This document shows, one piece after another, positions 1,833-59,814 of a stretch of DNA of 64,000 nt (the first letter of the stretch is position 1; every line of letters starts with the position of its first letter). The DNA is from Blastocatellia bacterium. Lineage in GTDB: Bacteria; Acidobacteriota; Blastocatellia; Chloracidobacteriales; Chloracidobacteriaceae. Made by a program: the position numbers and the translations under genes. The stretch is from positions 1 to 64,000 of the forward strand of contig JAIBAN010000001.1 in the NCBI GenBank assembly GCA_019695185.1, written 5' to 3'. Below the pieces are notes generated by a model that saw nothing but the letters and a program-made list of their open reading frames with translations, had not been told where the DNA came from and searched no databases.

Positions 1833-1860
1833 TTGAGTTGTTCATTTTGAGTTGTTCATT
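1833..1860. repeat. Two 14-base units (TTGAGTTGTTCATT) between nuoJ and nuoK
   Basis: TTGAGTTGTTCATT occurs twice in tandem (1833-1846, 1847-1860). The period is twice seven, like other arrays here. It lies just after the nuoJ stop. Confidence 0.85.
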
Positions 1861-1903
1861 TTGTGTTTGGGGCTTGCAGCAATTTTGGCGAAATCAAATT
1901 GGT

Positions 1904-2329
1904 ATGAATTCATTACTTTGTTCGGCTTTGTTTTTTTTATTCAACGCGGCCCAGGCAGCCCAGCAGGCCCTGCCGGAGGATGGCGGCGGTCCCTTGGCTG
2001 GTTTGAAACAGGCCGGCACCGTTAATTTCGTCGTTTTGGCGGGGCTTCTGTTTGTGGTGGGCATGGCCGGAGTGCTGACCCGGCGCAACATCATTGTGAT
2101 TTTTATGTCCATTGAGCTGATGCTCAATGCCACCAACTTGAATTTTATTGCCTTTGCCCGGTATTGGCAGTTACAGGGCTCTCTCACCGCCGCCAATGGT
2201 CAAATGTTCACGTTGTTTGTGATTGTGGTGGCTGCGGCTGAGGCCGCCATCGGGCTGGCGTTGATTCTGGCTCATTACCGCAACCGCAAAACGGTTGAGG
2301 TGGATGAGATTGATTTGCTCAAGTGGTAA
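1904..2329 (+). CDS. nuoK: NADH-quinone oxidoreductase subunit K with N-terminal extension
   Basis: NuoK is a three-helix proton-channel subunit of complex I. The core contains both conserved membrane glutamates, in FMSIELMLNATNLNF and in VAAAEAAIGLALI. The product is 141 residues against about 100 for the family. The extra 40 N-terminal residues look like a cleavable signal sequence followed by a Gly/Pro-rich linker. I chose the ATG at 1904; the frame is open further upstream, but that would overlap nuoJ and run through a repeat. An alternative internal start would restore the usual length, but no ATG lies at the expected place. The array after the stop separates it from nuoL. Confidence 0.9.
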   Translation: MNSLLCSALFFLFNAAQAAQQALPEDGGGPLAGLKQAGTVNFVVLAGLLFVVGMAGVLTRRNIIVIFMSIELMLNATNLNFIAFARYWQLQGSLTAANGQMFTLFVIVVAAAEAAIGLALILAHYRNRKTVEVDEIDLLKW

Positions 2330-2335
2330 GGCAAT

Positions 2336-2514
2336 CAGGACTGAGGACTGAGGACTGAGGACTGAGACAGACAGGACCGAGGACTTGGGACGAGGAGCTG
2401 AGAAGGCTTTACTGCTGGTGTTTTACTCACAACTGGTTCATTGAGATAAATTCGATTTTTGGTGCAGAGGATTTACTCAGTCCTCAGTCCTCAGTCCTCA
2501 GTCCTCAGTCCTCA
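2336..2514. repeat. Inverted CTGAGGA arrays between nuoK and nuoL
   Basis: The left arm (2336-2367) has four units and the right arm (2475-2514) has five or six units of TCCTCAG. They are 107 bases apart. The right arm ends seven bases before the nuoL ATG. Confidence 0.96.
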
Positions 2515-2521
2515 AAAAAAT

Positions 2522-4861: not shown

Positions 4862-4880
4862 AATTCCAACGAGGAAAAGA

Positions 4881-6587
4881 ATGATGTTCCCCCCACTTCT
4901 GGCGACCGGCATTGAACCGGCACACTTCGACATTGGAAACATAGGGTTGCTCTCGCTGGTGGTTTGGCTGCCGCTGGTTGGCGCACTGGCATTGATGTTT
5001 TTCATCAACAAGGAAAAAACCGACCTCATCAGGAAATTCACGACGGGTTGGTTTGCTTTGTGTATGGTTCCGGCAATCTTGCTGGTCATCAAATGGAAAC
5101 CGGACGTCCAGGGACTTCAGTTCATCGAAAACTATGAATGGATTCCGATGATTGGAGCCAAGTACCAGCTTGGAGTGGATGGCATGGCCCTGGTGCTGGT
5201 GTTGCTGACGGCGCTTTTGGGAGTGCTGGCGGCACTCTGTTCCTGGGAATACATCACGACCCGGACCAAGGAATATTACGTCTTCCTGTTGTTGCTCCAG
5301 ACCGGAATGCTGGGTGTTTTCGCTGCTGCGGACCTCTTTCTGTTTTACGTCTTTTTCGAGGTCATGCTGGTGCCAATGTATTTTCTGATTGGCATTTGGG
5401 GCGGGGAACGACGGTTGTATGCCGCCATCAAGTTCTTTCTCTACACGCTGGTTGGTTCGGTGCTCATGCTGCTGGCCATTTTGAAGCTCTATTTTGCCGC
5501 ACCGGGCGTGGCCGTAGCCCATCCGAAGGAAGTGGCCGATTCGGTGGCCCTCCTGGTTGGCAACAATTCAGGCATGCTGGCTCTGGTACAGGATGGAATT
5601 GACGTTGCCCGCAACGCCGGGGGGCCATCGGGGGCTGCCGGGACTTTCAACCTGTTTGCCTTGCAGGCACTGGGAAGCGCGCGCGGGGCGGATGGTCTGG
5701 GGTTCATTCCGCTCAACTGGCAATTATGGATGTTTGCCGGGTTTGCCATCGGCTTTATGATTAAAGTGCCGATGTTCCCGTTTCATACGTGGCTGCCGGA
5801 TGCCCACGTGGAAGCCCCCACCGCCGGGTCGGTGGTGCTGGCGGGGGTGTTGCTCAAAATCGGAACCTATGGTTTTCTGCGGTTTAATTTTCCCATGTTC
5901 CCGGATGCAGCCAAACATCCGGTTACGCTTTCGGTTCTGGGCACCCTGGCGATTATCGGGATTGTCTATGGCTCGCTGGTGGCGATGGCCCAAAAGGACA
6001 TGAAAAAACTGGTGGCCTATTCATCGGTCGGGCACATGGGGCTGTGTATGCTTTCCATGCTGGCGTTGAATCCCAACGGCATCAACGGCTCCGTATTGCA
6101 GATGCTGAATCACGGGATTTCGACCGGCGCGCTCTTTTTGTTGGTCGGAGTGATTTACGAACGGCGTCATACCCGCCAAATCTCCGAGTTTGGCGGATTG
6201 GCCAACGTGGTACCGGCCTATGCGACGATTTTCTTCATCACCACCTTGTCTTCTATCGGGGTGCCGCTTCTGAATGGGTTCATTGGCGAATTTGTCGGGT
6301 TGCGGGGCGTACTTGAAGCCAAAGTAAGCTGGGCTTTCTGGGGAGCGACGGGCATTATTTTGGGTGCCGCCTATATGCTTTGGCTGTATCAACGGGTATT
6401 TTTTGGCACAGTCACCAATCCGCGCAACGAAGGGCTTTCCGATTTGACCGCCCGCGAATGGGCTTATCTGCTGCCGCTGGTGGTTTTGATGTTTTGGATT
6501 GGAATCTATCCGAAACCGGTTATGAAATACATTGACGGTCCGACCAACACCATCGTCAAGCAGGTGTCACCGGGCTACTTCAAATAA
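4881..6587 (+). CDS. nuoM: NADH-quinone oxidoreductase subunit M
   Basis: NuoM is the second antiporter-like proton-pumping subunit of complex I. The 568-residue product contains the hallmark segments FHTWLPDAHVEAPTAGSV and KKLVAYSSVGHMG, and a dozen or more hydrophobic helices. A loop of about 50 residues (near 210-270) is longer than in the E. coli protein. A GAGG Shine-Dalgarno sequence lies upstream of the first of two ATG codons. The gene follows nuoL by 19 bases without a repeat array, in contrast to the nuoK-nuoL and nuoM-nuoN junctions. Confidence 0.96.
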   Translation: MMFPPLLATGIEPAHFDIGNIGLLSLVVWLPLVGALALMFFINKEKTDLIRKFTTGWFALCMVPAILLVIKWKPDVQGLQFIENYEWIPMIGAKYQLGVDGMALVLVLLTALLGVLAALCSWEYITTRTKEYYVFLLLLQTGMLGVFAAADLFLFYVFFEVMLVPMYFLIGIWGGERRLYAAIKFFLYTLVGSVLMLLAILKLYFAAPGVAVAHPKEVADSVALLVGNNSGMLALVQDGIDVARNAGGPSGAAGTFNLFALQALGSARGADGLGFIPLNWQLWMFAGFAIGFMIKVPMFPFHTWLPDAHVEAPTAGSVVLAGVLLKIGTYGFLRFNFPMFPDAAKHPVTLSVLGTLAIIGIVYGSLVAMAQKDMKKLVAYSSVGHMGLCMLSMLALNPNGINGSVLQMLNHGISTGALFLLVGVIYERRHTRQISEFGGLANVVPAYATIFFITTLSSIGVPLLNGFIGEFVGLRGVLEAKVSWAFWGATGIILGAAYMLWLYQRVFFGTVTNPRNEGLSDLTAREWAYLLPLVVLMFWIGIYPKPVMKYIDGPTNTIVKQVSPGYFK

Positions 6588-6714
6588 ATTGAGAATTGAG
6601 AATTGAGAATTTTTCCTGAATGAGCCAAACGGTTCATTCTGGTGAGACATAGCGAGAATTGATTCTCAATTCTCAATTCTCAATTCTCAATTCTCAATTC
6701 TCAATTCTCAATTG
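6588..6714. repeat. Inverted GAGAATT arrays between nuoM and nuoN
   Basis: The left arm (6588-6611) has three units right after the nuoM stop; the right arm (6663-6714) has about seven units of CTCAATT and ends nine bases before the nuoN ATG. Confidence 0.96.
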
Positions 6715-6723
6715 GGTTTTTCG

Positions 6724-8313: not shown

Positions 8314-8369
8314 CTCTGAGTGTTTGAAGGTTGAGTTGTTTGGGAACTGTTTTTCTGAGGAGTGCTGCC

Positions 8370-8612
8370 ATGCCGCTCTTGTCGCAAAATCCAAACGACA
8401 ATAATGACGGCATGTGGAAGCAAGCCCTTGTCTCGGTGGGCATTGCACTTTCCATTCCTTCGACCTTCGGGATTCCCCTGGGGTTAGGAATTTACCTTGA
8501 TTCCCAGTATCACACTGCTCCCCAATGGATGCTGATTCTGGGCGGGTTCGGGCTTTTGGGAATGGCCGTTGAGCTTTTCCAAATCTGGAAACGAAGCGGG
8601 CAGAAGGACTAA
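8370..8612 (+). CDS. AtpZ/AtpI-family ATP synthase accessory membrane protein
   Basis: The 80-residue product has two hydrophobic helices, SIPSTFGIPLGLGIYLD and LILGGFGLLGMAVELFQIWK. This is the usual form of the small AtpZ/AtpI (F0F1-ATPase gene 1-like) proteins encoded ahead of Fo genes; these have been linked to assembly or to Mg2+ and Ca2+ handling in some bacteria. The ATG is preceded by a good GAGGAG Shine-Dalgarno sequence at the right distance, which decides against an upstream TTG. Its place just before an AtpI-like gene and atpB supports the assignment. Confidence 0.8.
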   Translation: MPLLSQNPNDNNDGMWKQALVSVGIALSIPSTFGIPLGLGIYLDSQYHTAPQWMLILGGFGLLGMAVELFQIWKRSGQKD

Positions 8613-8628
8613 TGTGAAAAAAGAAAGA

Positions 8629-8680
8629 GCCACCTGAAGGCGGAACCCAGAACAGCCGCCTGAAGGCGGAACTCAAAACA
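8629..8680. repeat. Two 26-base palindromic units between the AtpZ-like and AtpI-like genes
   Basis: A 26-base unit containing CCGCCTGAAGGCGGAAC occurs twice in tandem (8629-8654, 8655-8680). The core CCGCCT-GA-AGGCGG of the second copy is a small perfect hairpin. It differs from the heptamer arrays. Confidence 0.85.
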
Positions 8681-9186: not shown

Positions 9187-9250
9187 TTTCAGGTTCAATG
9201 GTTTTGGGGAAACTCAATGCCTGCGAAACTGAACCCTGAACCCTGAAATG
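9186..9250. repeat. Short GGTTCA-type pair before atpB
   Basis: TTTCAGGTTCAATGG (9187-9201) faces CTGAACCCTGAACCCTGAA (from about 9229). It is a short GGGTTCA-family locus. The right arm ends about 12 bases before the atpB ATG. Confidence 0.75.
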
Positions 9251-10126: not shown

Positions 10127-10222
10127 TCGCATTTGCGATTTGCCATTTGCGGTTTGCCATTTGGTTTTTTCGCTCCAGGGATTGATTGAAAAATCGCAAA
10201 TCGCAAATGGAAAATCGCAAAT
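10127..10222. repeat. GCAAAT-type inverted array between atpB and the small membrane gene
   Basis: The left arm (10127-10163) alternates ATTTGCG and ATTTGCC; the right arm (10191-10222) is GCAAATC/GCAAATG. The right arm contains the first base of the next start codon. Confidence 0.9.
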
Positions 10223-16552: not shown

Positions 16553-16687
16553 GGGGGTAGGGTTCGGGGTTCAGGGTTCAGGGTTTTCGAATACCAGGAA
16601 ATTTGAAGCTCTGAATGGGTTTCAATTGTCAACTGTCCATTCAAAAGACCCTGAACCCTGAACCCCGAATCCCGAACCCTAGCCCCT
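16553..16687. repeat. GGGTTCA inverted array between the K+ channel and amidotransferase genes
   Basis: The left arm (16553-16586) carries GGGTTCG/GGGTTCA units and the right arm (16647-16687) carries CCCTGAA/CCCCGAA units. It is partly degraded. The left arm lies about ten bases from the channel ATG. Confidence 0.85.
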
Positions 16688-17300: not shown

Positions 17301-17361
17301 AAGGAAAAAGGTAAAAGGATAAAGGGTGAAACCTGCTGTTTTCCTTTTTCCTTTTTCCTTG
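17301..17361. repeat. CCTTTTT/AAGGAAAA inverted pair between AtuA and the amidotransferase genes
   Basis: AAGGAAAAAGGTAAAAGG (17301-17318) faces TTTTCCTTTTTCCTTTTTCC (from 17339). The right arm has a clear 7-base period (CCTTTTT). It is a separate sequence family with the same architecture. Confidence 0.8.
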
Positions 17362-19905: not shown

Positions 19906-20042
19906 GGAATTGAGAATTGAGAATTGAGAATTCAAAATCCAAATCAGGATGAATTGGTAGAGATGACAAACTGAACCTCATGAGGAAATTGAGAAATGAT
20001 TTTCCTCTCAATTCTCAATTCTCAATTCTCAATTCTCAATTC
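19906..20042. repeat. Inverted pair of GAGAATT heptamer arrays after bcp
   Basis: The left arm (19906-19932) has about four copies of GAATTGA-phase repeats. The right arm (20006-20042) has five copies of the complement CTCAATT. They are 73 bases apart and could form a long stem. The pair begins a few bases after the bcp stop. Confidence 0.9.
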
Positions 20043-21795: not shown

Positions 21796-21963
21796 GTCGG
21801 CACTCAGACCATGCTTTGCAATTGGGGCTTGCCTTCATTCGTACAGATGGATACATTGCCGGGTCCTTTTTTCATTTGCTATGTGCCGTGGGCCATTTCA
21901 CCAACTGAGTCAAAGATTTTTTTAACAAGGTTTTGCAAGACTTCGGGTGATTCGGCAAAATCA

Positions 21964-21994
21964 ATGGCAAATCGCAAATGGCAAATCGCAAATG
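21964..21994. repeat. GCAAATG/GCAAATC heptamer array upstream of fabF
   Basis: About four 7-base units alternate GCAAATG and GCAAATC. They sit 28 bases before the fabF ATG. A degraded opposite arm may lie around 21873-21898 (TTTGCTATGTGCC...GGCCATTT). The rest of the bshB1-fabF gap shows nothing else. Confidence 0.75.
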
Positions 21995-22021: not shown

Positions 22022-23278
22022 ATGAACGCCACGAATCACAAACGCCGCGTCGTTATCACCGGAATTGGTCTGGTGACGCCGATTGGAAATACCCGCGAAG
22101 ACAACTGGAACAGCCTCATGGAGGGCCGCTCCGGTGCAGGCCCGATTACGCATTTTGACGCAACCAATTTTGCGGTCCGTTTTGCCTGCGAAGTGAAAAA
22201 CTTTGATCCGGCCAATTATTTTGAACATCGGGAACTGAAACGGACCGCTCCGTTCATTCACTATGCCGTTGCTGCCGGGGAAGAGGCACTGGCTGACTCC
22301 GGTTTGAAAGTCACGCCTGACAACGCGGAACGTATCGGAATCTACATCAGCAGCGGCATCGGCGGTTTCGGTATGATTGAACGCGAGCACATGAAATTGA
22401 TTAAACAGGGGCCGCGCCACGTCTCGCCGTTCTTTATGATTTCCTATCTGGTCAATATGGCTGCCGGGCACCTTTCCATCCGGCACGGTCTGAAAGGACC
22501 CAGTTCCGCCACCGCCACTGCCTGTTCCGCTGGAGTTCACGCCATTGGCGATTCACTGCGCTGGATTCAGGAAGGGGATGCAGACGTGGTGGTATGCGGG
22601 GGAACCGAAGCCGCCATTACTCCGATGGGCGTCGGTGGTTTTGCCGCAGCCAAAGCCATGTCCACCCGCAACGACGACCCACAGCATGCTTCCCGCCCGT
22701 TTGACGCCAACCGCGACGGGTTTGTGCTGGGTGAAGGTGCCGGAATTCTGGTGCTGGAGGAATATGAACACGCCAAGGCTCGCGGAGCCAAAATCTATGC
22801 CGAAGCGGTAGGCTACGGGATGAGTTCGGATGCCTTTCACATTACGGCACCGGCACCGAATGGCGATGGCGTCTATCGGATGATTCGGGCGGTGTTGCGG
22901 GATGCGGAGGTGGCTCCGGATGTCGTCAACTACATCAATGCTCACGGGACCTCGACCCCGCTCAACGACAAAAACGAAACGCTGGCCATTAAGAATGCTT
23001 TTGGTGAGCACGCCTACAAACTTGCAGTCAGTTCCACCAAATCCATGACCGGCCATGCTCTTGGTGCCGCCGGCGGGATTGAAGCCTGTTTCACCGCTCT
23101 GGCAGTCGAGCGCCAGACCCTGCCGCCAACCATCAATTTTGAAACCCCCGACCCGGATTGTGATTTGGATTATGTTCCAAATCAGGCCCGCCCGGCCCAG
23201 ATTGAATATGCACTTTCAACTTCGTTGGGCTTTGGCGGCACCAATGCCGGAATCCTGCTGAAGAGAATTGAGAATTGA
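22022..23278 (+). CDS. fabF: 3-oxoacyl-[acyl-carrier-protein] synthase II
   Basis: FabF elongates fatty acids by condensing acyl groups with malonyl-ACP. The 418-residue product has the Cys-His-His triad in TACSAG, NAHGTSTPLND and TGHALGAAGG, and it starts with RRVVITGIGLVTPIG. The last residues (RIEN) and the TGA stop are read from the first unit of a GAGAATT array, so the repeat has replaced the original end. No acpP or other fab gene is adjacent. The ATG at 22022 follows GAACCGAGCC, a weak ribosome site. Confidence 0.96.
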   Translation: MNATNHKRRVVITGIGLVTPIGNTREDNWNSLMEGRSGAGPITHFDATNFAVRFACEVKNFDPANYFEHRELKRTAPFIHYAVAAGEEALADSGLKVTPDNAERIGIYISSGIGGFGMIEREHMKLIKQGPRHVSPFFMISYLVNMAAGHLSIRHGLKGPSSATATACSAGVHAIGDSLRWIQEGDADVVVCGGTEAAITPMGVGGFAAAKAMSTRNDDPQHASRPFDANRDGFVLGEGAGILVLEEYEHAKARGAKIYAEAVGYGMSSDAFHITAPAPNGDGVYRMIRAVLRDAEVAPDVVNYINAHGTSTPLNDKNETLAIKNAFGEHAYKLAVSSTKSMTGHALGAAGGIEACFTALAVERQTLPPTINFETPDPDCDLDYVPNQARPAQIEYALSTSLGFGGTNAGILLKRIEN

Positions 23279-23428
23279 GAATTGAGAATTGAGAATTGAG
23301 AATTGAGAATTGAGAATTGAGAATTGAGAGTCAATCACAACAGTTGTACTTTCCATTTCTCACTTTGGTTGTACTTTCCATTGTGGAAACCGTCATCCAG
23401 GTAATTCTCAATTCTCAATTCTCAATTA
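23263..23428. repeat. Inverted GAGAATT array pair between fabF and the M28 peptidase gene
   Basis: The left arm (23263-23330) has about nine copies of GAGAATT and overlaps the end of fabF. The right arm (23403-23428) has about three copies of CTCAATT and overlaps the TAA stop of the convergent peptidase gene. The pair could act as a bidirectional hairpin between convergent genes. Confidence 0.95.
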
Positions 23429-30789: not shown

Positions 30790-30863
30790 CAGGACTGAGG
30801 ACTGAGGACTGAGGACTGAGAACTGAGCCAGATTTCATTCGCAGTGGCAGGTCCTCAGTTCAG
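30790..30863. repeat. CTGAGGA heptamer arrays between VIT-vWA and aroB
   Basis: The left arm (30790-30827) has five copies of ACTGAGG-phase repeats directly after the stop. A short right arm, TCCTCAG (30849-30863), lies near the aroB end. The two genes are convergent. Confidence 0.9.
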
Positions 30864-32025: not shown

Positions 32026-32094
32026 GTCGGTAAAGATTCAGCTTTGGAAAATTTCAGTATGAGTTGAGGAGCAGCGAATCCGAATCATCAAATA

Positions 32095-32140
32095 ATTCTC
32101 AATTCTCAATTCTCAATTCTCAATTCTCAATTCTCAATTC
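32095..32140. repeat. CTCAATT heptamer array at the end of the M3-like gene
   Basis: About six units of AATTCTC run from 32095 to 32140 and overlap the last codons (RIEN-stop) of the minus-strand gene. No matching opposite arm is visible before aroB, so this is a single-armed locus. Confidence 0.9.
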
Positions 32141-41858: not shown

Positions 41859-41874
41859 AAGGTTTGAATTGAGA

Positions 41875-41992
41875 AGTTCGAATTGAGAATTGAGAACTAT
41901 CTACCAGGAAACGCTTGGAATCCAACCCTCACATTGGTGAAAGCCTGTAAGCCAAATCATCGCACCGGTTTCAAAACCGCAATTCTCAATTA
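41875..41992. repeat. GAGAATT/CTCAATT arrays between cdaA and hisF
   Basis: The left arm (41875-41897) has about three units, one disrupted (GAATTGAGAAGTTCG). The right arm (41981-41992) is short and its edge provides the TAA stop of the minus-strand cyclase gene. Confidence 0.8.
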
Positions 41993-44375: not shown

Positions 44376-44951
44376 ATGGATTCTCCAACCTCTGACGTTT
44401 CTCCGGTTTCGGCTCGTTTTCAGCACATCGCCCAAAAAATCCGGGTGCCATCTGGCTTTGTTCTTGGTTTGCTCTATCTCTATTTGGCTCATCCAACCGT
44501 TAGACTCCTGATTGGGGGTGCAGTCATTGCGTTTTTTGGTGTCCTGATGCGGGCCTGGGCGTCGGGGAATTTGCGCAAAAACATGAGTCTGGCCACTGGC
44601 GGCCCTTATGCCTTAACTCGCAATCCATTGTATCTGGGTAGTTTGCTGATGGGCATCGGATGTGCCCTGGCGGGTGGGAATCCGTGGATTGCTTTGGGGT
44701 TGCTTCTCTTTTTTCTGGTTGTGTACCTGCCGGTGATGCAGGCTGAGGCCCGGTATCTGACAAAACTGTTTCCGGAAGCGTATCCTGGTTATGCCCAGCG
44801 GGTTCCGCTCCTGCTGCCCAAACTCTCGGCCCTGCCGGAAGCGCTCCGGGCACCGTTCGACTTTGCGCTCTATGTACGGTACCGGGAATACCGTGCCGCT
44901 TTGGGAGTGCTGGCGGTGTTTGGGTTCCTGGTTGGTAAGCTATTTTTCTAG
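44376..44951 (+). CDS. Isoprenylcysteine carboxyl methyltransferase-like membrane protein
   Basis: The 191-residue product has four or five hydrophobic helices and the ICMT/PEMT SAM-binding region GGPYALTRNPLYLGSLLMGIGCALA plus the later EARYLTKLFPEAYPGYAQRVP. It belongs to the family of methyltransferases that modify lipids or prenylated substrates in bacteria. Substrate unknown. Three in-frame starts are possible: ATG 44280, 44367 and 44376. I use the last on family length, but the first has a weak AGG site. Confidence 0.8.
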   Translation: MDSPTSDVSPVSARFQHIAQKIRVPSGFVLGLLYLYLAHPTVRLLIGGAVIAFFGVLMRAWASGNLRKNMSLATGGPYALTRNPLYLGSLLMGIGCALAGGNPWIALGLLLFFLVVYLPVMQAEARYLTKLFPEAYPGYAQRVPLLLPKLSALPEALRAPFDFALYVRYREYRAALGVLAVFGFLVGKLFF

Positions 44952-45122
44952 GATTCAGGATTCAGGGTTCAGGGTCTTTGCAATGGACAATGGACAATGA
45001 ACAATTGACAATTAAACCCCTACAGAACTTCAAAATTCCCCTGGCCATCGAAAACCCTGAACCCTGAACCCTGAACCCTGAACCCTGAACCCTGAACCCT
45101 GAACCCTGAACCCTGAACCCTG
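44951..45122. repeat. Mixed heptamer arrays (GGGTTCA, CAATGGA) between ICMT-like and Nudix genes
   Basis: GGATTCA/GGGTTCA units run 44951-44976. A different heptamer, CAATGGA (with CAATGAA and CAATTGA), runs 44981-45014. About ten copies of TGAACCC run 45053-45122 and end three bases before the next ATG. Two families share one gap. Confidence 0.92.
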
Positions 45123-45124
45123 AT

Positions 45125-45667
45125 ATGCCCAAACTTCTTTCCCATAACCAGTTTCACCAAGGGCGGGTGTTTAATGTTGCCCACGATGTGATTGAACTCG
45201 AATCCGGTTTGCAGATTGCCATTGATGTGGTTTATCACAACGGCGGGGCAGCGGTGTTGCCGTTATTCGACAACGGGGATGTGTTGCTCATCCAGCAATA
45301 CCGGCATCCTGCCAACCAGGTTTTGACCGAAATCCCGGCTGGTCGGCTGGAGCCCGGCGAAGACCCGCAACTGGCTGCGCTCCGCGAACTTGAAGAGGAA
45401 ACCGGCTGGCGGGCCGGGAAAATCAAACCGGTTACACAGTTTTACGCATTGCCTGGATACAGTACCGAAGTGCTCTATTGCTTTGTTGCCACCGAACTGA
45501 CGCCCGGCACCAAACAACTGGACCATGACGAAGAAATTCATACTCTCCGGGTTCCGCTCACAGAAGCCGTGGCAATGGTCGAGCGGGGCGAAATCAAAGA
45601 CGCCAAAACAATGATGACGTTGCTCCTGGTGGCCCGAAACCACAAAGGACTGAGGACTGAGGACTGA
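45125..45667 (+). CDS. Nudix hydrolase, ADP-ribose pyrophosphatase-like
   Basis: The 180-residue product has a Nudix box GRLEPGEDPQLAALRELEEE followed by TGW, which matches GX5EX7REUXEEXGU. The N-terminal strand region, IPAG before the box and FYALPGYSTEVLYCFVA after it are as in ADP-ribose pyrophosphatases. A role in hydrolysing ADP-ribose or NDP-sugars is likely. The start codon lies three bases after a TGAACCC array and has no Shine-Dalgarno sequence. The last residues (RTED) and the TGA stop are read from a CTGAGGA array. Confidence 0.9.
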   Translation: MPKLLSHNQFHQGRVFNVAHDVIELESGLQIAIDVVYHNGGAAVLPLFDNGDVLLIQQYRHPANQVLTEIPAGRLEPGEDPQLAALRELEEETGWRAGKIKPVTQFYALPGYSTEVLYCFVATELTPGTKQLDHDEEIHTLRVPLTEAVAMVERGEIKDAKTMMTLLLVARNHKGLRTED

Positions 45668-45762
45668 GGACTGAGGACTGAAGCGTTTTCATCAGATGTC
45701 GTGAAATATTCGGGATTGATGACCGTTGTAAGTTTTTCCTCAGTCCTCAGTCCTCAGTCCTG
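45647..45762. repeat. Inverted CTGAGGA arrays between Nudix and first nucleotidyltransferase genes
   Basis: The left arm (45647-45681) has five units and contains the Nudix stop codon. The right arm (45737-45762) has about four units of TCCTCAG and ends six bases before the next ATG. Confidence 0.95.
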
Positions 45763-45767: not shown

Positions 45768-46682
45768 ATGCTGATACTTCCTCCTGGAACCCAAATTGTG
45801 ACCCGGATTGAGCGGCGGAAGCTCAACAGTACCTCGTTTTACCCGGTTGGAGCCGTCGGTGTGATTGTCAAAGCACCGGATGACGGGTCGCATTCCTATC
45901 TGATTCAGTTTCCCGATGGCGGGGAATCAGCTTTTCAGCGGCACGAATTTTCCATCCGCAAGCATTTTCAGCGGGAAGGATATGAAGTTGCGGCAGATGC
46001 ACTGGCCGATTTTAACCTTTACAAATACGTTATTTACCGGTGCATTGTGGGGTCCAGGGCATATGGGTTGGACCATGAAGACTCCGACGTGGACCGGCGT
46101 GGCATCTACCTGCCTCCGGCGGAATTGCACTGGTCCCTGTTTGGAGTTCCGGAACAACTGGAAAACAAAGAAAACGAAGAGTGTTATTGGGAACTGCAAA
46201 AATTTCTGACCCTGGCGCTCAAGGCCAATCCGAATATTCTGGAGTGTCTGTTCACCCCGATTGTGGAAACTGTAACCCCGTTGGCACAGGAACTGCTCGA
46301 TATGCGCGGTGCGTTTTTGTCGAAACTGGTCTATCAGACCTACAATGGCTATGTCATGTCGCAGTTCAAAAAAATCGAGCAGGACATCCGCAATCACGGC
46401 CAGGTCAAATGGAAGCATGCCATGCATCTGATTCGGCTTTTGATGTCAGGCATCAATCTGTTGAAAGAAGGGGTGTTGACAGTTCAGGTAGGGGAACAGC
46501 GCGATGCACTTCTGGCCATCCGGTACGGTGAACGCACCTGGGAGGCTGTCAACGCATGGCGCATCCAGCTTCATGCAGAATTTGATGCCGCCCTGCAAGC
46601 AACCAAGTTACCCGACCGTCCGGATTACGAACAGGTCAATGCTTTTTTAATCCAGGCTCGCCGAAGCCAAATCAAGAACTGA
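45768..46682 (+). CDS. Predicted nucleotidyltransferase with N-terminal beta domain
   Basis: The 304-residue product has an N-terminal region of about 75 residues, likely an SH3-like barrel. A nucleotidyltransferase domain of the COG3541 type follows, with CIVGSRAYGLDHEDSDVDRRGIY, the GS and DxD metal motif. The helical C-terminal half (LIRLLMSGINLLKEG) may close the site. The substrate is unknown; relatives include tRNA or protein nucleotidyltransferases. ATG 45768 follows a TCCTCAG array without a Shine-Dalgarno sequence. Confidence 0.8.
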   Translation: MLILPPGTQIVTRIERRKLNSTSFYPVGAVGVIVKAPDDGSHSYLIQFPDGGESAFQRHEFSIRKHFQREGYEVAADALADFNLYKYVIYRCIVGSRAYGLDHEDSDVDRRGIYLPPAELHWSLFGVPEQLENKENEECYWELQKFLTLALKANPNILECLFTPIVETVTPLAQELLDMRGAFLSKLVYQTYNGYVMSQFKKIEQDIRNHGQVKWKHAMHLIRLLMSGINLLKEGVLTVQVGEQRDALLAIRYGERTWEAVNAWRIQLHAEFDAALQATKLPDRPDYEQVNAFLIQARRSQIKN

Positions 46683-46705: not shown

Positions 46706-46736
46706 CTCAGTCCTCAGTCCTCAGTCCTCAGTCCTG
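46706..46736. repeat. TCCTCAG array upstream of second nucleotidyltransferase gene
   Basis: Four units end eight bases before the ATG at 46745. No opposite arm lies after the first nucleotidyltransferase gene. Confidence 0.9.
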
Positions 46737-46744: not shown

Positions 46745-47494
46745 ATGTTGGATTCCCGACTTTCCGAGATTGTCGCTGAACAGCCCTTCCCGCTTCTATT
46801 TGCCACGGTGAGCGGGGCGCATCTTTATGGATTTCCTTCGCCGGATTCGGATTTTGATTTGCGCGGGGTTCATATTCTCCCTATTCGGGATGTGATAGGG
46901 CTGACCCCCGGACGTGAAACCATTGAAATTTCCGAAATGCGGGGCACGTTGGAACTTGATTTGGTTACCCACGACATCAAAAAATTCTTTGGTCTCATGC
47001 TCAGGAAAAACGGTTATGTGCTGGAACAGCTTTTTTCCCCGCTGATTGTGCAGACCTGTGACGAGCATGCCGAACTCAGGGACATCGCCAAAGGATGTAT
47101 CACCCGGCATCACAGCCATCATTATTTTGGCTTTGCCGAAACCCAATGGAAACTTTTCAGCAAGGAAAACCCCCGCCGGGTCAAGCCCCTGCTTTATGTC
47201 TTCCGAGTGCTGCTGACCGGCATCAACCTCATGAAAACCGGTGTGGTGGAAGCCAATCTGGTTCATTTGAATGAGGTTTACAACCTCCCCTACATACCGG
47301 ATTTGATTGCCCGCAAACTTTCGGGACCGGAAAAGTCCACACTGGACGCCACCGATTTTGACTTTTTTGAGGCTGAATATCAGCGGTTGCGGGGAGAACT
47401 GGAGGCCGCTTTCCAGGTGTCACCCTTGCCCGAAACCCCCTCTGCCCAGGCTGCCCTCAATGATTTGTTGATTCGGGTCCGGCTTAAACCATGA
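46745..47494 (+). CDS. Predicted nucleotidyltransferase, second copy
   Basis: The 249-residue product has a nucleotidyltransferase motif near the N-terminus, TVSGAHLYGFPSPDSDFDLRGV, and the same C-terminal helical element FRVLLTGINLMKTG as its neighbour. It lacks the N-terminal beta domain of the first copy. The two probably form a heteromer or act on related substrates. No Shine-Dalgarno sequence precedes the ATG. It is followed after 16 bases by a racemase gene. Confidence 0.8.
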   Translation: MLDSRLSEIVAEQPFPLLFATVSGAHLYGFPSPDSDFDLRGVHILPIRDVIGLTPGRETIEISEMRGTLELDLVTHDIKKFFGLMLRKNGYVLEQLFSPLIVQTCDEHAELRDIAKGCITRHHSHHYFGFAETQWKLFSKENPRRVKPLLYVFRVLLTGINLMKTGVVEANLVHLNEVYNLPYIPDLIARKLSGPEKSTLDATDFDFFEAEYQRLRGELEAAFQVSPLPETPSAQAALNDLLIRVRLKP

Positions 47495-51815: not shown

Positions 51816-51911
51816 TTCACCGCAGAGGCGCAAAAATGTCACAGAGCTGTCGCAGAGATTTTGGAGTTTTCTCTGCGAGCCTCTGCGGAACCTCTGCGCC
51901 TCTGCGGTGAA
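51816..51911. repeat. CTCTGCG repeat pair between the dehydrogenase and ndk
   Basis: CACCGCAGAGGCGCA (near 51818-51832) faces CTCTGCG units at 51870-51911 that end in GCCTCTGCGGTGA. A middle segment (51841-51858) has CAGAG units. This GCAGAG repeat is seen in many soil bacteria. The two ends can pair. Confidence 0.85.
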
Positions 51912-52368: not shown

Positions 52369-52501
52369 TCATTTGCGATTTGCCATTTGCGATTTGCCAT
52401 CGTTGCCAAGTGTAATTTGGCACTTCAGGGCTGAAGGTCGCCAAATCGTTCGATGGTGAATGACAAAAAATCCCAAATGGCAAATCGCAAATCGCAAATG
52501 G
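52369..52501. repeat. Inverted GCAAATC array pair between sucD and ndk
   Basis: The left arm (52369-52402) alternates ATTTGCG and ATTTGCC; the right arm (52472-52501) is its complement. The right arm touches the sucD stop region. Confidence 0.92.
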
Positions 52502-52503
52502 AT

Positions 52504-53376: not shown

Positions 53377-53402
53377 GGGTATGATGGCCCCTTTCAGGTT
53401 TT

Positions 53403-53540
53403 AGGGTTCAGGGTTCAGGGTTCAGGGTTCAGGGTGTTTGGGGGCTGAGAATTGAGAAGTGCAAATTGAGAATTGTTTGACTCTCTAAGATTCTCAAAAC
53501 TTGAAAAAACCCTGAACCCTGAACCCTGAACCCTGAACCC
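53403..53540. repeat. Nested arrays (GGGTTCA outside, GAGAATT inside) between mlaD and sucD
   Basis: GGGTTCA units (53403-53435) and their complement (53509-53540) form the outer arms. A degraded GAGAATT/CTCAATT pair (53446-53475 and 53480-53497) lies between them. One family seems to have been inserted into the other. Confidence 0.92.
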
Positions 53541-53544
53541 TTTC

Positions 53545-54663: not shown

Positions 54664-54670
54664 AAAGCAA

Positions 54671-54836
54671 GTCCTGGGAGTCCTGGGAGTCTTGGGAGTC
54701 CTGGGAGTCTTGGGAGTCCTGGGAGTCTTGGGAGTCTTGGGAGTCTCAAAACTCAGAAGTCAAAGTCAAAATCCAGAAGGCGACAAAACTGCCTTTGACT
54801 CTCAAGACTCCCAGGACTCCCAAGACTCCCAAGACT
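54671..54836. repeat. Nine-base repeat (GTCCTGGGA/GTCTTGGGA) pair between mlaD genes
   Basis: About eight units of 9 bases run 54671-54742, and the complement (54798-54836) has four or more. It is the only locus here with a 9-base period. The arms reach close to the start and stop of the flanking genes. Confidence 0.95.
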
Positions 54837-54842
54837 GGTTTT

Positions 54843-55964: not shown

Positions 55965-55978
55965 GGAACCCTCTTTTT

Positions 55979-56082
55979 CATTTGCGATTTACCATTTGCG
56001 ATTTCCATCAGTCAAACCTGGTTTTTTCAAGGTGTGAATCAGAAAGGAAAAATCGCAAGTGGCAAATCGCAAATGGCAAATG
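55979..56082. repeat. Inverted GCAAATC arrays between mlaD and mlaF
   Basis: The left arm (55979-56007) reads ATTTGCG-ATTTACC-type units and the right arm (56050-56082) is GCAAATC/GCAAATG. The right arm touches the mlaF stop. Confidence 0.9.
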
Positions 56083-56085
56083 ACT

Positions 56086-56895
56086 CTATTCCAGAAACTT
56101 CTGAATAAACGGGTCGGTGGAACTCCACAACGCCTCCCCGTCGCCTTCAAATATGATTTTTCCACTCCGGAGCACAATAAATTGTGTACTGGCGTTTTGC
56201 TCCGGACGGGTATTTTTGACAATTGCCAACTCGCCGTTATCGTCAATTGTGGCATGTTCACGAGCCAAGGACGTGGCATCCTGAATGCGATGGGTGACGA
56301 AAATCGAACTGACGCCCTCCAGGTCACGCAATTTCATGGCCAGTTCGCAAATCGTGCGTGCCGTCGGTGGGTCGAGTCCAGCCGTGGGCTCATCGTACAA
56401 AATGATTTTCGGGCTGCCCACCAGTGCCCGTGCAATGCCGACCCGCCGCCGCATCCCGCCGGAAAGCTCGGAAGGCATTTTACTGATAGCCTGCTCCAGA
56501 TTGACAAAGCGCAGGGTGCGCTGCACGGTTTCCTCGATTTCCTCTTCATCCGCCCCCTGTTCTGCCAGCCGATAGCCCACATTCTGATACACCGAGAGAC
56601 TGTCAAACAAAGCCCCATCCTGAAAAACCATGCCGATTTTCTGTCGGACTTTCATCATCTGGGATTCTTTGTAATGGGTCACATCCTCGCCATCGACCAG
56701 AATCTGCCCGGAATCCGGTTTCAAAAGTCCCAAAACCAGTTTCAGGGTGGTTGACTTGCCGGTGCCCGAACCACCCATCAGGATTTTGGTTTCGCCAGGG
56801 CGCACCACAAAGCTGACCCCATCCAAAATCACCTGGGGGCCAAAGGTCAGCACCACGTCTCGGAATTCAATCGCGTTTCGGGAATCTTCGGGCAT
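56086..56895 (-). CDS. mlaF: MlaF-type ABC transporter ATP-binding protein
   Basis: The 269-residue ATPase has Walker [15 protein letters not shown], the signature [15 protein letters not shown] and Walker [15 protein letters not shown]. It energises lipid movement by the MlaE permease. The C-terminal 40 residues, with [20 protein letters not shown], are typical of the MlaF subfamily. The start has an array within about eight bases and no Shine-Dalgarno sequence. Confidence 0.95.
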
Positions 56896-56902
56896 ACAAA
56901 GC

Positions 56903-57014
56903 GAATTGAGAATTGAGAATTGAGAATTGAGAATTGAGAAATTTTGTTCTGTCTGGTAGGCAATCTTTAGATTTCAGATAATTCTCAATTCTCAATTCTC
57001 AATTCTCAATTCTC
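56903..57014. repeat. Inverted GAGAATT arrays between mlaF and mlaE
   Basis: The left arm (56903-56942) has five or six units beside the mlaF start. The right arm (56980-57014) has about five units of CTCAATT beside the mlaE stop. The arms can form a long hairpin. Confidence 0.95.
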
Positions 57015-57015
57015 T

Positions 57016-57780
57016 TCAGGGGGTTGAACTGAGTGCAATCACCAGCTTGGTCAAAAAGAAATCACTGATGAGGATTAAAAGAATGGAAACGACCACCGAC
57101 TGTGTGGTGGAGCGTCCGACACCCACGGTTCCACCCGTGGTGCGCAGCCCGGACCGGCATCCCACAATCGCCACAATCAAGCCAAAAACCGTCGGTTTGA
57201 GCAATCCGCCAAAGATGTCGTTATAGTTCAGGGCTTCATGAACTGAAGAAAGATAAACCGAGGTGGGCAGTTTCAAAAGGGTGGTGGCAATCACCCAACC
57301 ACCAAAAACCCCAACCAGGTCACCAAAAACCGTGAGGACCGGAGCCATCAGCAGCAAGGCCATCATGCGGGGCATGACGAGTTTGCGAATCGGGTCCGTG
57401 CCGAGCGCCCGCATGGCGTCAATCTGTTCGCTGACTTTCATTGAACCCAGTTCTGCCGTAATGCCGGAACCGGAACGCCCGGCCAACAGAATAGCCGTCA
57501 GGACCGGTCCCAACTCGCGGACCAGGGAGGTGGCCACCAGCCGCCCGGTAAAATTCTGAGCCCCAAAGGATTGCAGAGTTTTGGCGGTTTGCAGTGCGAG
57601 CACGGCCCCAATAAAAAAACCCGCCAGCAATGTAATCGGCAGCGTTCCAACCCCGATGATATCCATCTGTGTGACGGTTTCACGAACATAGACAGGCCGT
57701 TGCGTGAGGCCCCGAAACGAACGGGCCACCAGCATTGTGCCTTCCTGGATTTCAGTCAACCATTGGATGAGAAGCTTCAT
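57016..57780 (-). CDS. mlaE: MlaE-type ABC transporter permease
   Basis: The 254-residue permease has five to six hydrophobic helices and the family segment LLAGRSGSGITAELGSMKVSEQIDAM followed by ALGTDPIRKLVMPR. It is the membrane core of the MCE lipid transporter and the first gene of the mlaE-mlaF-mlaD-mlaD unit. The start codon lies six bases from a GGGTTCA array. The transporter presumably maintains outer-membrane lipid asymmetry or lipid supply, given the two MCE proteins. Confidence 0.95.
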   Translation of the reverse strand: MKLLIQWLTEIQEGTMLVARSFRGLTQRPVYVRETVTQMDIIGVGTLPITLLAGFFIGAVLALQTAKTLQSFGAQNFTGRLVATSLVRELGPVLTAILLAGRSGSGITAELGSMKVSEQIDAMRALGTDPIRKLVMPRMMALLLMAPVLTVFGDLVGVFGGWVIATTLLKLPTSVYLSSVHEALNYNDIFGGLLKPTVFGLIVAIVGCRSGLRTTGGTVGVGRSTTQSVVVSILLILISDFFLTKLVIALSSTP

Positions 57781-57788
57781 TTACATTT

Positions 57789-57909
57789 AGGGTTCAGGGT
57801 TCAGGGTTCAGGGTTCAGGGTTCAGGGTTTTTAATATTTGAAGGTCTTTGAGGACAAGTTCCAAATCCGTTAAAGACCCTGAACCCTAAACCCTGAACCC
57901 TAAACCCTC
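57789..57909. repeat. Inverted GGGTTCA arrays upstream of mlaE
   Basis: The left arm (57789-57829) has about six GGGTTCA units and the right arm (57876-57909) has TGAACCC/TAAACCC units. It separates mlaE from the upstream secreted protein gene on the same strand. Confidence 0.95.
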
Positions 57910-57916
57910 AAGTTTC

Positions 57917-59494
57917 TTAGGAGAGTGGAACGAAAAACGGTTCCGAAGCGAGACCGGTTTCAGTGACAACCTGCACGGTCAGCCCAGGGCGGAGTTGCAA
58001 ATCGGTGGGAAGTTTGACCAACACTCGTTGATTCAGTCGGTTGCGGTTGCTGCGGCGGGCTCTGACGGTCAATTCACGGCCTTCGACGATGATGGTGGGC
58101 AGGTAACCCAGTCCCTGACCACGCAACAGCAACGCGGAAACCGGTGCCTGTGGACTGCGGCGAACTCGCAGGAGGCTGGTTACCTGGACGGCCACTGACC
58201 GCACCCGGACTGCCGGAGCAATCTGTTTGCCGGAAGCATCCGCCAGCCACACGACATGGCCACCCGGTACGGTTGCTTTCCATTTGAAGGAGCCCAGCGT
58301 GGTGGTCCGTGCGGTAAACGAGGTGGTCGTCACCTGGTCGCCCCGTTCCGAAACAATCACCGCTTGAGCGGCGGCCATCAAGCCTTCGCCAAAAACCAGC
58401 ACATCCACCGGCTCGCTGTTGGGTTCAGAAAGTGTGGATACGATGTTGTTTGAAAGAGCCCGGATTTGAGTCGCCCCAGGTTCGGTTGCCGTGGCCGTCC
58501 GGGCTGCTGAAACCACCGTGACCCGCCGGGAAAAAGCCTGGATATTGAGTCCGTCCGTAACATAGCCGAACATCACGGCCCGGCCTGCTTCCATGGCCTT
58601 GAGCCGCAGGGCATTATCGGAAAATTTGGCGTCAAGAATCCGTCCGGCAAAACCGAGCACCCCATACCCGAACGTCAACGGGCGGGCGGCAGGAGTCCGC
58701 GAGGTACTGGTCCAGGTGCAGGACTCGCCCCGGCGCAGCGTCAAATCCGGCGGCAAGTCGTCAAAGACCGGCGTCTGTGCCCCTTCTGCCCCATCGGTGA
58801 CAGTCAGGGTGACCGGTTCAAAACTGAGATTTCCGGCAAAGAGCTTTAACCGGTCGTTTTTCACATCGGCAAACAATTCGGTGGCCACCAGCAGCAGGGC
58901 TGCGGTTCCGGGCCGAAGTGCCGTCACCCGCCAGACAATCACGTTGGGACGGGTACTGGGAAGAATTTCAACATCAATGCTGCGGCCCAATTGACTGCGG
59001 TCCACCAGCACCCTGGAGCGGGAGAAAAACACGCCGTCCCTGGCCGGGAGGGGTAAAAATCCGACTACCCCGGCAAACAGCGGGTCGTTTTCGGCGTCCT
59101 CAAAGGTAAAGGTAAAGGTTTTGCTTTCGCCCACTCGAAGAGTCCGGTCGGTTTCGAGTACGCGAACCACCGGAGCCTGTCCGTGGCCGGGAAGACTATG
59201 ACCGGTGGCTGCCGCCTCGCCTTGCGCGGAGTCGGGCAGTTCGGTGGGATTTCCCATCACCCGCAGGTCTTTGGCCAGAACTTTGGTTGCTTTGGTCTGG
59301 ATTTCAAACGGCAGGCCCTCTGCCGGGAACCCGGTAATGGTGGTCTGTCCGGCTCGGTCCAGGTCTTCGTCGGTTTCGGCCTGGGCTGCGACACTCCAAC
59401 AGCTCACCAGGCAGATCGCCCACAGGAGCAGATTTCGAGTCAATTTGCGATTTCCACGTGTTGAAGGTGACAAAAAAAAGCCCCTTTCGGTCAT
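57917..59494 (-). CDS. Large secreted protein of beta-sandwich type, function unknown
   Basis: The 525-residue product has a signal peptide (NLLLWAICLVSCWSVAAQAE). The rest is Val/Thr-rich and looks like several Ig- or IPT-like beta domains (TRTLRVGESKTFTFTFEDAENDP, LTLRRGESCTWTSTSRTP, LLLRGQGLGYLPTIIVEGREL). No catalytic motif is seen. It may bind the cell surface or the outer membrane. The gene lies upstream of mlaE on the same strand, but there is an array in between, so a link with lipid transport is only a guess. Confidence 0.75.
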   Translation of the reverse strand: MTERGFFLSPSTRGNRKLTRNLLLWAICLVSCWSVAAQAETDEDLDRAGQTTITGFPAEGLPFEIQTKATKVLAKDLRVMGNPTELPDSAQGEAAATGHSLPGHGQAPVVRVLETDRTLRVGESKTFTFTFEDAENDPLFAGVVGFLPLPARDGVFFSRSRVLVDRSQLGRSIDVEILPSTRPNVIVWRVTALRPGTAALLLVATELFADVKNDRLKLFAGNLSFEPVTLTVTDGAEGAQTPVFDDLPPDLTLRRGESCTWTSTSRTPAARPLTFGYGVLGFAGRILDAKFSDNALRLKAMEAGRAVMFGYVTDGLNIQAFSRRVTVVSAARTATATEPGATQIRALSNNIVSTLSEPNSEPVDVLVFGEGLMAAAQAVIVSERGDQVTTTSFTARTTTLGSFKWKATVPGGHVVWLADASGKQIAPAVRVRSVAVQVTSLLRVRRSPQAPVSALLLRGQGLGYLPTIIVEGRELTVRARRSNRNRLNQRVLVKLPTDLQLRPGLTVQVVTETGLASEPFFVPLS

Positions 59495-59814
59495 ATCAAA
59501 ACGAAAAAACGCCCCTTGTCAGGATGTGTCGTGCTTGGAAAGAAAATCCTTTTTGATGTGTGGCCCAAACCTAAATTCTTTCCTATGGCTTCGTCAACTC
59601 CCGATTCGGGAAAAAGTTCCGGTTCCCGGCAGAATCCACGGTTTCCACCAGAAAGAAACAACCGGAATTGGGAAACCGGGAAAGGGCTTTTTCAATGGAC
59701 AACCGGCAAGGGACCATAGACAATGCAGCGGTTTGGGCCGGTGAAGCTGTCACAACGCTGCTTTCCTGAACCCTCAAATCTGAACCCTCAAATCTGAACC
59801 CTGAAATCTAAATC
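59495..59814. other. Divergent gap before the methyltransferase gene
   Basis: This gap of about 320 bases holds no convincing gene. Its last 50 bases (59764-59813) are three units of a 14-base repeat (GAACCCTCAAATCT), twice the 7-base period. The array ends a few bases before the GTG start. The promoters for both flanking genes should lie in the remainder. Confidence 0.6.

What the first reader, a model, noticed from the sequence alone, without database searches (positions are those of the whole stretch)
1833..59813. Many families of 7-base tandem arrays occupy most intergenic gaps as inverted pairs
At least six heptamers (GAGAATT, CTGAGGA, GGGTTCA, GCAAATS, CCTTTTT, CAATGGA) occur in tandem in more than 20 gaps. 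Most loci have one arm after the upstream gene and the complementary arm before the downstream gene. Units within a locus are near identical, while different loci use different heptamers. The order is fixed: GAGAATT, CTGAGGA and GGGTTCA always come as the left arm on the plus strand, whatever the gene direction. Heptanucleotide STRR repeats are known in filamentous cyanobacteria, but paired inverted arms of many families are not something I know described. The arms could fold as hairpins, act as terminators or stabilise mRNA.
Basis: partly seen in the sequence, partly recalled or inferred. Interest (0 to 1): 0.8.

Follow-up and report, generated by a model that had tools for sequence, protein, structure and literature searches.

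The report
Seven-base repeat hairpins between bacterial genes
Nearly half of the gaps between genes in this stretch of a large bacterial genome hold short repeats, mostly seven bases long and usually in mirror-image pairs; related bacteria carry such pairs in some of the same gaps with different repeat words, which suggests a set of small, fast-changing mobile elements whose job, if any, is unknown.

Summary
25 of 52 window gaps carry arrays. In 859 kb of this genome 319 intergenic blocks have period 7 or 9; other periods, double heptamers (14) apart, are rare. Same-family arrays are neighbours far beyond chance (78 of 110 against 17 expected).

The arms belong to inverted-repeat elements, arm-core-arm. 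One core has 41 places and G003 cores recur; GAGAATT cores are nearly all unique. A compact sister genome has one period-7 intergenic block in 400 kb, and its four comparable gaps are 2-57 nt. A second large-genome genus has mostly different heptamers in the same gaps.

The strand running from a gene into the gap is G-rich: 136 against 3 at stops, 88 against 5 before starts, and in 29 of 35 unit families. Arm lengths are uncorrelated, and canonical terminators are rare in these gaps.

Paired heptamer arms are already described in Xanthomonas (PMC4692102), so this is a new, many-family variant of a known kind. How the elements move, and any function, are unproven.

The parts
1833..1867 (.). array TTGAGTTGTTCATT x2.5 after the stop at 1827
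2337..2402 (+). left arm AGGACTG (imperfect towards the inside)
2476..2514 (-). right arm CTCAGTC x5.6
6587..6611 (+). left arm AATTGAG x3.6, starting on the last base of the stop codon
6662..6713 (-). right arm ATTCTCA x7.4; this orthologous gap is 82 nt in G003 and 17 nt in G001, no array detected in either
9229..9247 (-). single right arm CTGAACC before atpB
10130..10163 (+). left arm CATTTGCGATTTGC after atpB
10191..10222 (-). right arm AAATCGC type
16559..16585 (+). left arm GGGTTCA
16583..16652 (.). core (with arm edges) that has 41 places in the genome, this one included
16648..16680 (-). right arm ACCCTGA
17339..17360 (-). TTTTCCT array, degenerate partner before it
19907..19932 (+). 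left arm GAATTGA
20006..20042 (-). right arm TCTCAAT
21963..21994 (.). single array AATGGCAAATCGCA
23263..23329 (+). left arm GAGAATT x9.6, overlapping the end of the FabF-like gene (stop at 23278)
23330..23402 (.). core, one match (itself) in the whole genome
23403..23427 (-). right arm AATTCTC, at the stop of the convergent gene
30791..30827 (+). single left arm AGGACTG
32094..32140 (-). single right arm AATTCTC
41866..41896 (+). left arm GAATTGA, with a short CAATTCTCAATT partner near 41985
44950..44973 (+). outer left arm AGGATTC/GGGTTCA
44981..45012 (+). inner nested array CAATGGA
45053..45123 (-). outer right arm AACCCTG x10.1
45646..45681 (+). left arm AGGACTG x5.1
45737..45761 (-). right arm TCCTCAG
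46706..46735 (-). single right arm CTCAGTC (orthologous gap in G003 is 12 nt)
52370..52400 (+). left arm CATTTGCGATTTGC
52468..52499 (-). right arm AAATCGC
53393..53435 (+). outer left arm TTCAGGG, with imperfect GAGAATT-type arms inside
53508..53541 (-). outer right arm AACCCTG
54670..54746 (+). 9-mer left arm AGTCTTGGG
54797..54836 (-). 9-mer right arm GACTCCCAA
55975..56008 (+). left arm CATTTGCGATTTAC (orthologous gap in G005 is 26 nt)
56050..56082 (-). right arm AAATCGCAAATGGC
56903..56940 (+). left arm GAATTGA; the same gap carries other heptamers in G003 and G001 and is 34 nt in G005
56980..57014 (-). right arm AATTCTC
57789..57829 (+). left arm AGGGTTC (G003 has TATGAAT arms in this gap)
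57876..57908 (-). right arm ACCCTGAACCCTAA
59766..59809 (-). single right array CTGAACCCTCAAAT

Best explanation
The arrays are the terminal inverted repeats of a many-family set of small (about 100-250 nt), non-coding, interspersed elements. Each is an arm of tandem heptamers (in one family 9-mers), a core of roughly 40-170 nt, and the complementary arm. They were gained as whole units in short gaps after stop codons and before ribosome-binding sites of a lineage whose compact relative has gaps of a few to tens of bases there. Once in place, arms change in copy number and unit sequence faster than cores, by slippage inside arrays, each arm on its own. Families are largely replaced between genera, and some families lie nested inside others. 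Shown on the samples read: arrays, pairing, shared cores in several families, different heptamers at orthologous gaps, chirality, independent arm lengths. Inferred: that copies spread by transposition-like movement, that slippage drives arm change, that nested families are the older ones, and that all families arose this way. How they move is unknown. I think it most likely that they are tolerated mobile repeats rather than dedicated regulators, and that the chirality (G-rich strand running from gene into gap) is kept by selection on RNA: a C-rich, G-poor tract just after a stop codon would load Rho, and a G-rich tract just before a start codon would disturb the ribosome site.
For: Copies at different sites: the core of window 16583-16652 has 41 places in the genome (103 candidates, 40 scored); the 30 read out each have a GGGTTCA-type arm on the left side, and their flanks differ where held. 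The 9-mer core and two pairs of CTGAGGA cores recur. In relative G003, 16 of 23 paired rows have core or array matches elsewhere (at least one array-only, three rows from one locus), with one pair 98.6% identical over 213 nt between different flanks; in that pair the arm units differ (TTAGTGG against TTCGTGG) while the core barely does. Unit gain: of 5 conserved gaps found between this sample and 400 kb of G005, the 4 with arrays here are 156, 121, 120 and 75 nt (the last with one arm only) against 2, 26, 34 and 57 nt there; G005 shows 1 intergenic period-7 block. Turnover: of 9 orthologous gaps occupied here and in G003, the closest units differ by 2 or more substitutions or in length in 7. 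Independent arms: Spearman 0.07, p=0.54, 87 pairs. Chirality: 136 against 3 and 88 against 5 here, 42 against 2 and 29 against 0 in G003; 29 of 35 unit families here and 18 of 22 in G003.
Against: The GAGAATT family has mostly unrelated cores: of 34 paired rows in 859 kb only 4 (two from one locus) cluster, in a group that also holds GGGTTCA cores, and the one core searched genome-wide occurs once. Simple copying does not predict that. No clear target-site duplication (14 of 87 with 4 nt or more against 10 permuted; 8 against 4 for 5 nt or more), no empty site recognised in the sample, no transposase tied to the elements (only Y1_Tnp was searched). In convergent gaps the element nearly reaches both stop codons (median 8.5 nt left over, 18 gaps) although array-free convergent gaps have a median of 108 nt, tighter than random insertion predicts. 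Unrelated units are neighbours in 18 of 110 cases, some of them nested. In G003 only 32 of 45 neighbouring arrays are in the G-rich-left, C-rich-right order, 12 face the same way and 1 is reversed, and one of the two near-identical G003 copies has G-rich units beyond its right end. The Rho argument is untested.
Confidence: 0.52

Rival explanations
1. Arrays grow in place by slippage and are kept because the paired arms form a stem useful at gene ends (terminator, exonuclease block, RNase III site, or a fold that brings the stop codon next to the following start).
For: Arms lie a median 3-4 nt from stops and 13-20 nt from starts. Eight window gaps fold far below shuffles. Gaps with arrays rarely hold a canonical intrinsic terminator: convergent 1 of 29 against 11 of 42, tandem 1 of 127 against 8 of 158, divergent 0 of 15 against 1 of 52. 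Complementary arms are in excess.
Against: The same units recur at dozens of sampled loci (83 AATTCTC, 75 ACTGAGG arrays) and some cores are copied, which needs dissemination. Arm lengths are uncorrelated. Variant units are shared between the two arms of a locus only marginally (7 against 3.6 in 24 loci, p=0.06; 23 of 77 loci against 17.3 permuted, maximum 28). 87 of 300 arrays are single. Terminator exclusion may reflect lack of room.
Confidence: 0.2
2. Polar repeat addition: G-rich 7-mers are synthesised onto the two 3' ends that face an interrupted gap, by an unidentified templated polymerase, and the ends are then joined through filler DNA.
For: The G-rich strand runs 5'-3' into the gap whatever the gene direction, with few exceptions, also for single arms and for most unrelated neighbours. 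Arm ends are phase-locked (ACTGAGG arms start AGGACTG 34 of 44 and end GACTGAG 28 of 44) with sharp edges. Unit length is mostly 7, less often 9 and in G003 8, whatever the sequence. GAGAATT cores are mostly unique.
Against: Copied cores with arms show that whole units spread. No reverse transcriptase or template was searched for. Point-variant arms look like slippage.
Confidence: 0.06
3. The arrays are binding sites for an RNA- or DNA-binding regulator, as proposed for TAACTGA repeats.
For: Placement next to starts and stops; suggestion in the abstract of PMC4679880 for Beggiatoaceae.
Against: Many unrelated heptamers are placed alike and differ at orthologous genes; the window neighbours identified are ordinary housekeeping genes.
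Confidence: 0.07
4. RAYT/IS200-type REP elements.
For: Extragenic, paired, after stop codons; the genome has 11 Y1_Tnp matches.
Against: In the ten Y1 loci read the nearest array is about 210 nt from the match (L107, a fragment) and elsewhere over 600 nt or absent; one Y1 gene has a different palindrome of its own.
Confidence: 0.05
5. Assembly artefact.
For: Draft assembly, 222 contigs.
Against: Separate assemblies G001 and G003 show the same architecture with other heptamers.
Confidence: 0.01

Closest known systems
GGGAATC heptamer repeats of Xanthomonas (Rehm et al. 2015, PMC4692102; passages and sections 10, 11, 16 read)
   Same: Intergenic heptamer arrays; 70 and 75 convergent inverted pairs; [quoted passage not shown] divergent gaps under-represented; length and sequence variation at conserved gaps.
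   Different: One family studied there; here several major families plus many minor ones, copied cores, nesting, a 9-mer family, and mostly different heptamers between genera at the same gaps.
Heptanucleotide STRR repeats of cyanobacteria and GGGGA(C/T)T of Nostoc PCC 7120 (through PMC4692102; the name STRR is recalled)
   Same: Heptanucleotide arrays, many loci, mainly intergenic.
   Different: Few inverted pairs in Nostoc (PMC4692102, section 11); here most arrays are paired.
TAACTGA repeats of Beggiatoaceae, cyanobacteria and Bacteroidetes (MacGregor 2015, PMC4679880; abstract and section 10 read)
   Same: Intergenic heptamer arrays; for some Bacteroidetes a relative with a shorter gap and no obvious repeats.
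Bacterial MITEs, for example BrickBuilt of Porphyromonas gingivalis (PMC4596501; abstract read)
   Same: Small non-coding inverted-repeat element containing a tandem repeat, intergenic.
   Different: BrickBuilt has a 23-nt repeat between small inverted ends; here the tandem repeats are the inverted ends. No parent transposase or clear target duplication found here.
REP/BIME elements (GTAG and CGTC, PMC3733652; abstract read)
   Same: Repetitive extragenic palindromes after coding regions, foldable, mainly between convergent or co-directional genes.
   Different: REPs are 20-40 bp palindromes with tetranucleotide tags; here arms are tandem heptamers with a core of roughly 40-170 nt.

Membership tests
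Heptanucleotide tandem repeats (STRR type) | Tandem 7-nt units, many intergenic loci | tested here: met
   282 intergenic against 14 genic period-7 blocks in 859 kb
GGGAATC-type paired heptamer arrays (Xanthomonas) | Convergent pairs of complementary arrays | tested here: met
   106 of 110 neighbouring arrays G-rich left and C-rich right, none reversed; in G003 32 of 45, 1 reversed
GGGAATC-type paired heptamer arrays (Xanthomonas) | Unit GGGAATC or GGGANTN, quadruplex-capable | tested here: not met
   Main units GAGAATT, CTGAGGA, GGGTTCA, AGTCTTGGG; only some contain GGG
MITE | Multi-copy, non-coding, terminal inverted repeats | tested here: met
   for the GGGTTCA, 9-mer and several G003 families; not for GAGAATT
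MITE | Target-site duplication | tested here: inconclusive
   14 of 87 with 4 nt or more against 10 permuted; array ends are fuzzy
MITE | Parent transposase sharing the ends | not tested
   Only Y1_Tnp was searched
REP/RAYT | REP palindromes flank a Y1 transposase gene | tested here: not met
   ten loci
Intrinsic terminator | GC-rich stem followed at once by a T-tract | tested here: not met
   canonical sites in 2 of 171 array-bearing gaps of 40-400 nt (20 of 252 without arrays)
Known Rfam RNA family | Match at gathering score | tested here: not met
   none in the window

The most novel reading that the evidence does not exclude
A bacterial enzyme adds short G-rich repeats, mostly 7 and sometimes 8 or 9 nt per step and with a changeable sequence, onto the 3' ends facing an opened intergenic gap, much as telomerase heals chromosome ends. 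The genome-wide chirality, near-fixed unit length, phase-locked arm ends, single and mismatched arms and unique cores would be its footprint, and the heptamer arrays of cyanobacteria and Xanthomonas would be the same activity.
Probability: 0.06. Interest if true: 0.95.

Novelty: new variant of a known kind. Interest (0 to 1): 0.58.

Why it matters
Why heptamers stand out among bacterial tandem repeats is an open question (PMC4692102 says a functional role remains to be elucidated). This lineage offers many replicate loci: about 370 arrays per Mb of the sample, relatives with mostly different heptamers in the same gaps, a compact sister genome almost without arrays, and one near-strict rule of strand chirality. 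The rule matches the preference stated for Xanthomonas and Nostoc, so it may point to a shared cause, either selection on transcripts or the process that writes the repeats, and it can be tested.

Tried and rejected
Arm-to-arm copying by hairpin template switching: only marginal sharing of variant units and no length correlation, though single striking mirrors exist (C11:8295, read by eye; C86:206302). Core as the ancestral intergenic sequence: disfavoured for three orthologous gaps that are 2-34 nt in G005. Decay gradient beyond arm ends: none clear. Empty sites within the sample: none recognised; most spanning hits were self matches or other copies of the element families, and one short group (C86:56826) was not examined. 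RAYT link: rejected. Base composition of ordinary gaps as the sole cause of chirality: array-free gaps show only a slight skew (G 0.27, C 0.21-0.24) against arms (G 0.37, C 0.09). A cyanobacterial plasmid as outside test of chirality: two period-7 blocks in 50 kb, too few. Genome-contig scan for named relatives: no useful relative. Class survey, 20 genomes, one stretch of up to 20 kb each (that of G015 gave no readable bases): intergenic period-7 blocks in 4 (G014, G021, G033, G037), too little for a rule. Rarity of terminators in array-bearing gaps is confounded by room in the gap.


Full report
Setting. The window is G000:C72:1-64000 of an 8.33-Mb assembly in 222 contigs. No tool named the organism. 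Its family in the held set includes a compact genus (g3, 2.8-3.7 Mb) whose member G005 is held in two contigs, the first 2.64 Mb; I infer, from recall of genome layouts, a large-genome relative of Chloracidobacterium. The flanking genes identified are ordinary: atpB, a NuoM/L-type subunit, a peroxiredoxin, CoaE, FabF, 3-dehydroquinate synthase, a succinyl-CoA ligase subunit, a DisA-type cyclase and Mla proteins (20 proteins scanned, two without a match). There are no Rfam or tRNA matches in the window.

Data used. I read the window plus 795 kb of the same genome (5 kb of it reads N), together 859 kb, with a simple codon-based gene caller of my own. Gene starts are therefore approximate. Relatives: 352 kb of G003, placed partly by orthology; 108 kb of G001 contigs and 103 kb of G030, most of them chosen because they carry GAGAATT arrays; 400 kb of G005.

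The arrays are real and specific. In 459 kb, perfect arrays of three or more copies are 119 intergenic and 8 genic at period 7, 12 and 0 at period 9, and almost none intergenic at other periods above 4. With a tolerant detector on 859 kb: period 7, 282 intergenic and 14 genic; period 9, 37 and 7; period 8, 5 and 2; period 14, 29 and 2, double heptamers at least in part. Arrays of periods 7, 8, 9 and 14 are 1.4% of the DNA and 9% of the non-coding DNA. Main families are AATTCTC (83 arrays), ACTGAGG (75), AACCCTG (52), the 9-mer AAGACTCCC (26), AAAACTC (15) and AAATCGC (7), with many minor ones. The pattern (GAGAATT)3 has 763 overlapping matches in the genome, and its reversed, uncomplemented control none.

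Pairing. Of 110 neighbouring arrays 15-200 nt apart, 106 have the G-rich form left and the C-rich form right, none the reverse. 78 are of one family against 17.3 in 2000 label shuffles, maximum 32. In G003 the order holds in 32 of 45 (8 and 4 facing the same way, 1 reversed), in the selected G001 contigs in 9 of 9, in the G030 contigs in 1 of 2. 213 of 300 arrays have their own complement in the gap, against 30 of 675 trials for another major family. Eight whole gaps fold far below shuffles.

Chirality. The rule: the strand running from the gene into the gap is G-rich. At stops it holds 136 against 3, and within 40 nt of starts 88 against 5. In G003 it is 42 against 2 and 29 against 0; in G001 11 against 0 and 4 against 1. 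By unit family, many of them with a single array, 29 of 35 follow it here (3 ties, 3 against), 18 of 22 in G003 (3 ties, 1 against) and 8 of 9 in G001 (1 tie). Single arms follow it too (77 of 87). Array-free gaps show only a slight skew the same way. PMC4692102 states the same preference for Xanthomonas and Nostoc (its Discussion). The CATTTGC family is a near tie in G and C.

Elements. The GGGTTCA-armed core of window 16583-16652 has 41 matches in the genome, itself included (103 candidates, 40 scored). The 30 loci read show a sharp left junction after the arm, a conserved 5' half, an inner heptamer run that varies (CAATTGT, CAATTCT, CCATTGT) and varied arm units. The 9-mer elements share a core with inner GTGACAG/CTTGTCA arms, and an element with only those inner heptamers exists, so families nest. 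Two CTGAGGA pairs are copies at different sites. In G003, 16 of 23 paired rows match elsewhere (at least one by array alone, three rows from one locus); one pair is 98.6% identical over 213 nt between unrelated flanks, with changed arm units, although one of the two copies has G-rich units beyond its right end. By contrast GAGAATT cores are nearly all unlike each other, and the one searched genome-wide is unique. 24 of 87 cores have another match in the 859 kb.

Orthologous gaps. G005 nearly lacks the arrays (1 intergenic period-7 block in 400 kb) and has smaller gaps; of five conserved neighbours found, the four gaps with arrays here are 156, 121, 120 and 75 nt (the last with one arm) against 2, 26, 34 and 57 nt. 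Against G003, of 37 conserved neighbouring gene pairs both genomes have arrays in 9, only this one in 9, only G003 in 4, neither in 15 (Fisher p=0.07). In the 9 shared gaps the nearest units differ by 2 or more substitutions or by length in 7, by 1 in one, and agree in one. When only this genome has arrays, G003 gaps are not always smaller (median 82 against 106 nt). The Mla permease-ATPase gap is the clearest: GAGAATT arms here, CATCCCT-type in G003, CCCAAAA/GGGTGTC-type in G001, and gaps of 20-50 nt without visible arrays in G005, G006, G008, G010 and G011. Downstream of the ATPase G003 also has arms, but MlaD was not found next to it. The (GGGTTCA)3 pattern occurs in only 2 of 119 genomes of the phylum sample, this one and G003; (GAGAATT)3 in 8 of 58 including this one.

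Placement. In 459 kb, arms start a median 3-4 nt from a stop and end 13-20 nt from a start. In 18 convergent gaps with a pair, a median of 8.5 nt is left outside the element, although array-free convergent gaps have a median of 108 nt here and convergent gaps of 48.5 nt in G005, a quarter of them under 12 nt. In 48 of 136 cases the array starts before the end of the stop codon. This tightness is not fully explained.

Results against a tuned hairpin. Arm lengths are uncorrelated, variant units are barely shared between arms, 29% of arrays are single, and unrelated units are neighbours in 18 of 110 cases. Against simple transposition: mostly unique GAGAATT cores, no clear target duplication, no empty site recognised, no linked transposase (only Y1_Tnp was tested). 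For a terminator role: canonical terminators are rare in array-bearing gaps, but room is a confounder, and arrays lie inside the atp and mla gene strings.

Known work. Searches listed no paper describing these arrays in Acidobacteriota; that covers only the held open-access library and what the listings show. The nearest are PMC4692102 (paired GGGAATC in Xanthomonas) and PMC4679880 (TAACTGA). The finding is therefore a new, many-family variant of a known kind. What seems new is copied cores, nesting, different heptamers at the same gaps between genera, and the extension of the chirality rule over many families. The mechanism offered is the best fit, not a demonstration.

Noticed in passing
window 51818-51909 and L010 (C11 118118-118426): Another inverted repeat, CACCGCAGAGGCGC...GCGCCTCTGCGGTG, sits in gaps and looks like a separate dispersed palindrome family.
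   Followed up: no
own genome C7:112579-112727, C7:70042-70181, C7:24186-24326: A palindromic repeat of about 23-26 nt (CCGCCGCCTGAAGGCGGAACTCCAAA) in tandem and dispersed, partly inside a CTGAGTT-armed element.
   Followed up: partly
L101 (own genome C185:47489-47833 region): A Y1 transposase-like gene flanked on both sides by an inverted GTCGCTGACGCGACGG-type palindrome, a possible RAYT with its own REP.
   Followed up: partly
window 45768-46682 and 46745-47494: Two neighbouring genes both match PF10127 RlaP (RNA repair pathway DNA polymerase beta family).
   Followed up: no
own genome C12:6102-6471: Higher-order repeat: blocks of CTGAGGA units separated by CCAATCA on the left arm and by GGGTTTG-like spacers on the right arm.
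   Followed up: no
own genome C11:93531-93737 and C3:19497-20037: 9-mer CGCGAAACA/TTTCGCGTA repeats, balanced or nearly balanced in G and C, which are ties or exceptions to the chirality rule.
   Followed up: no
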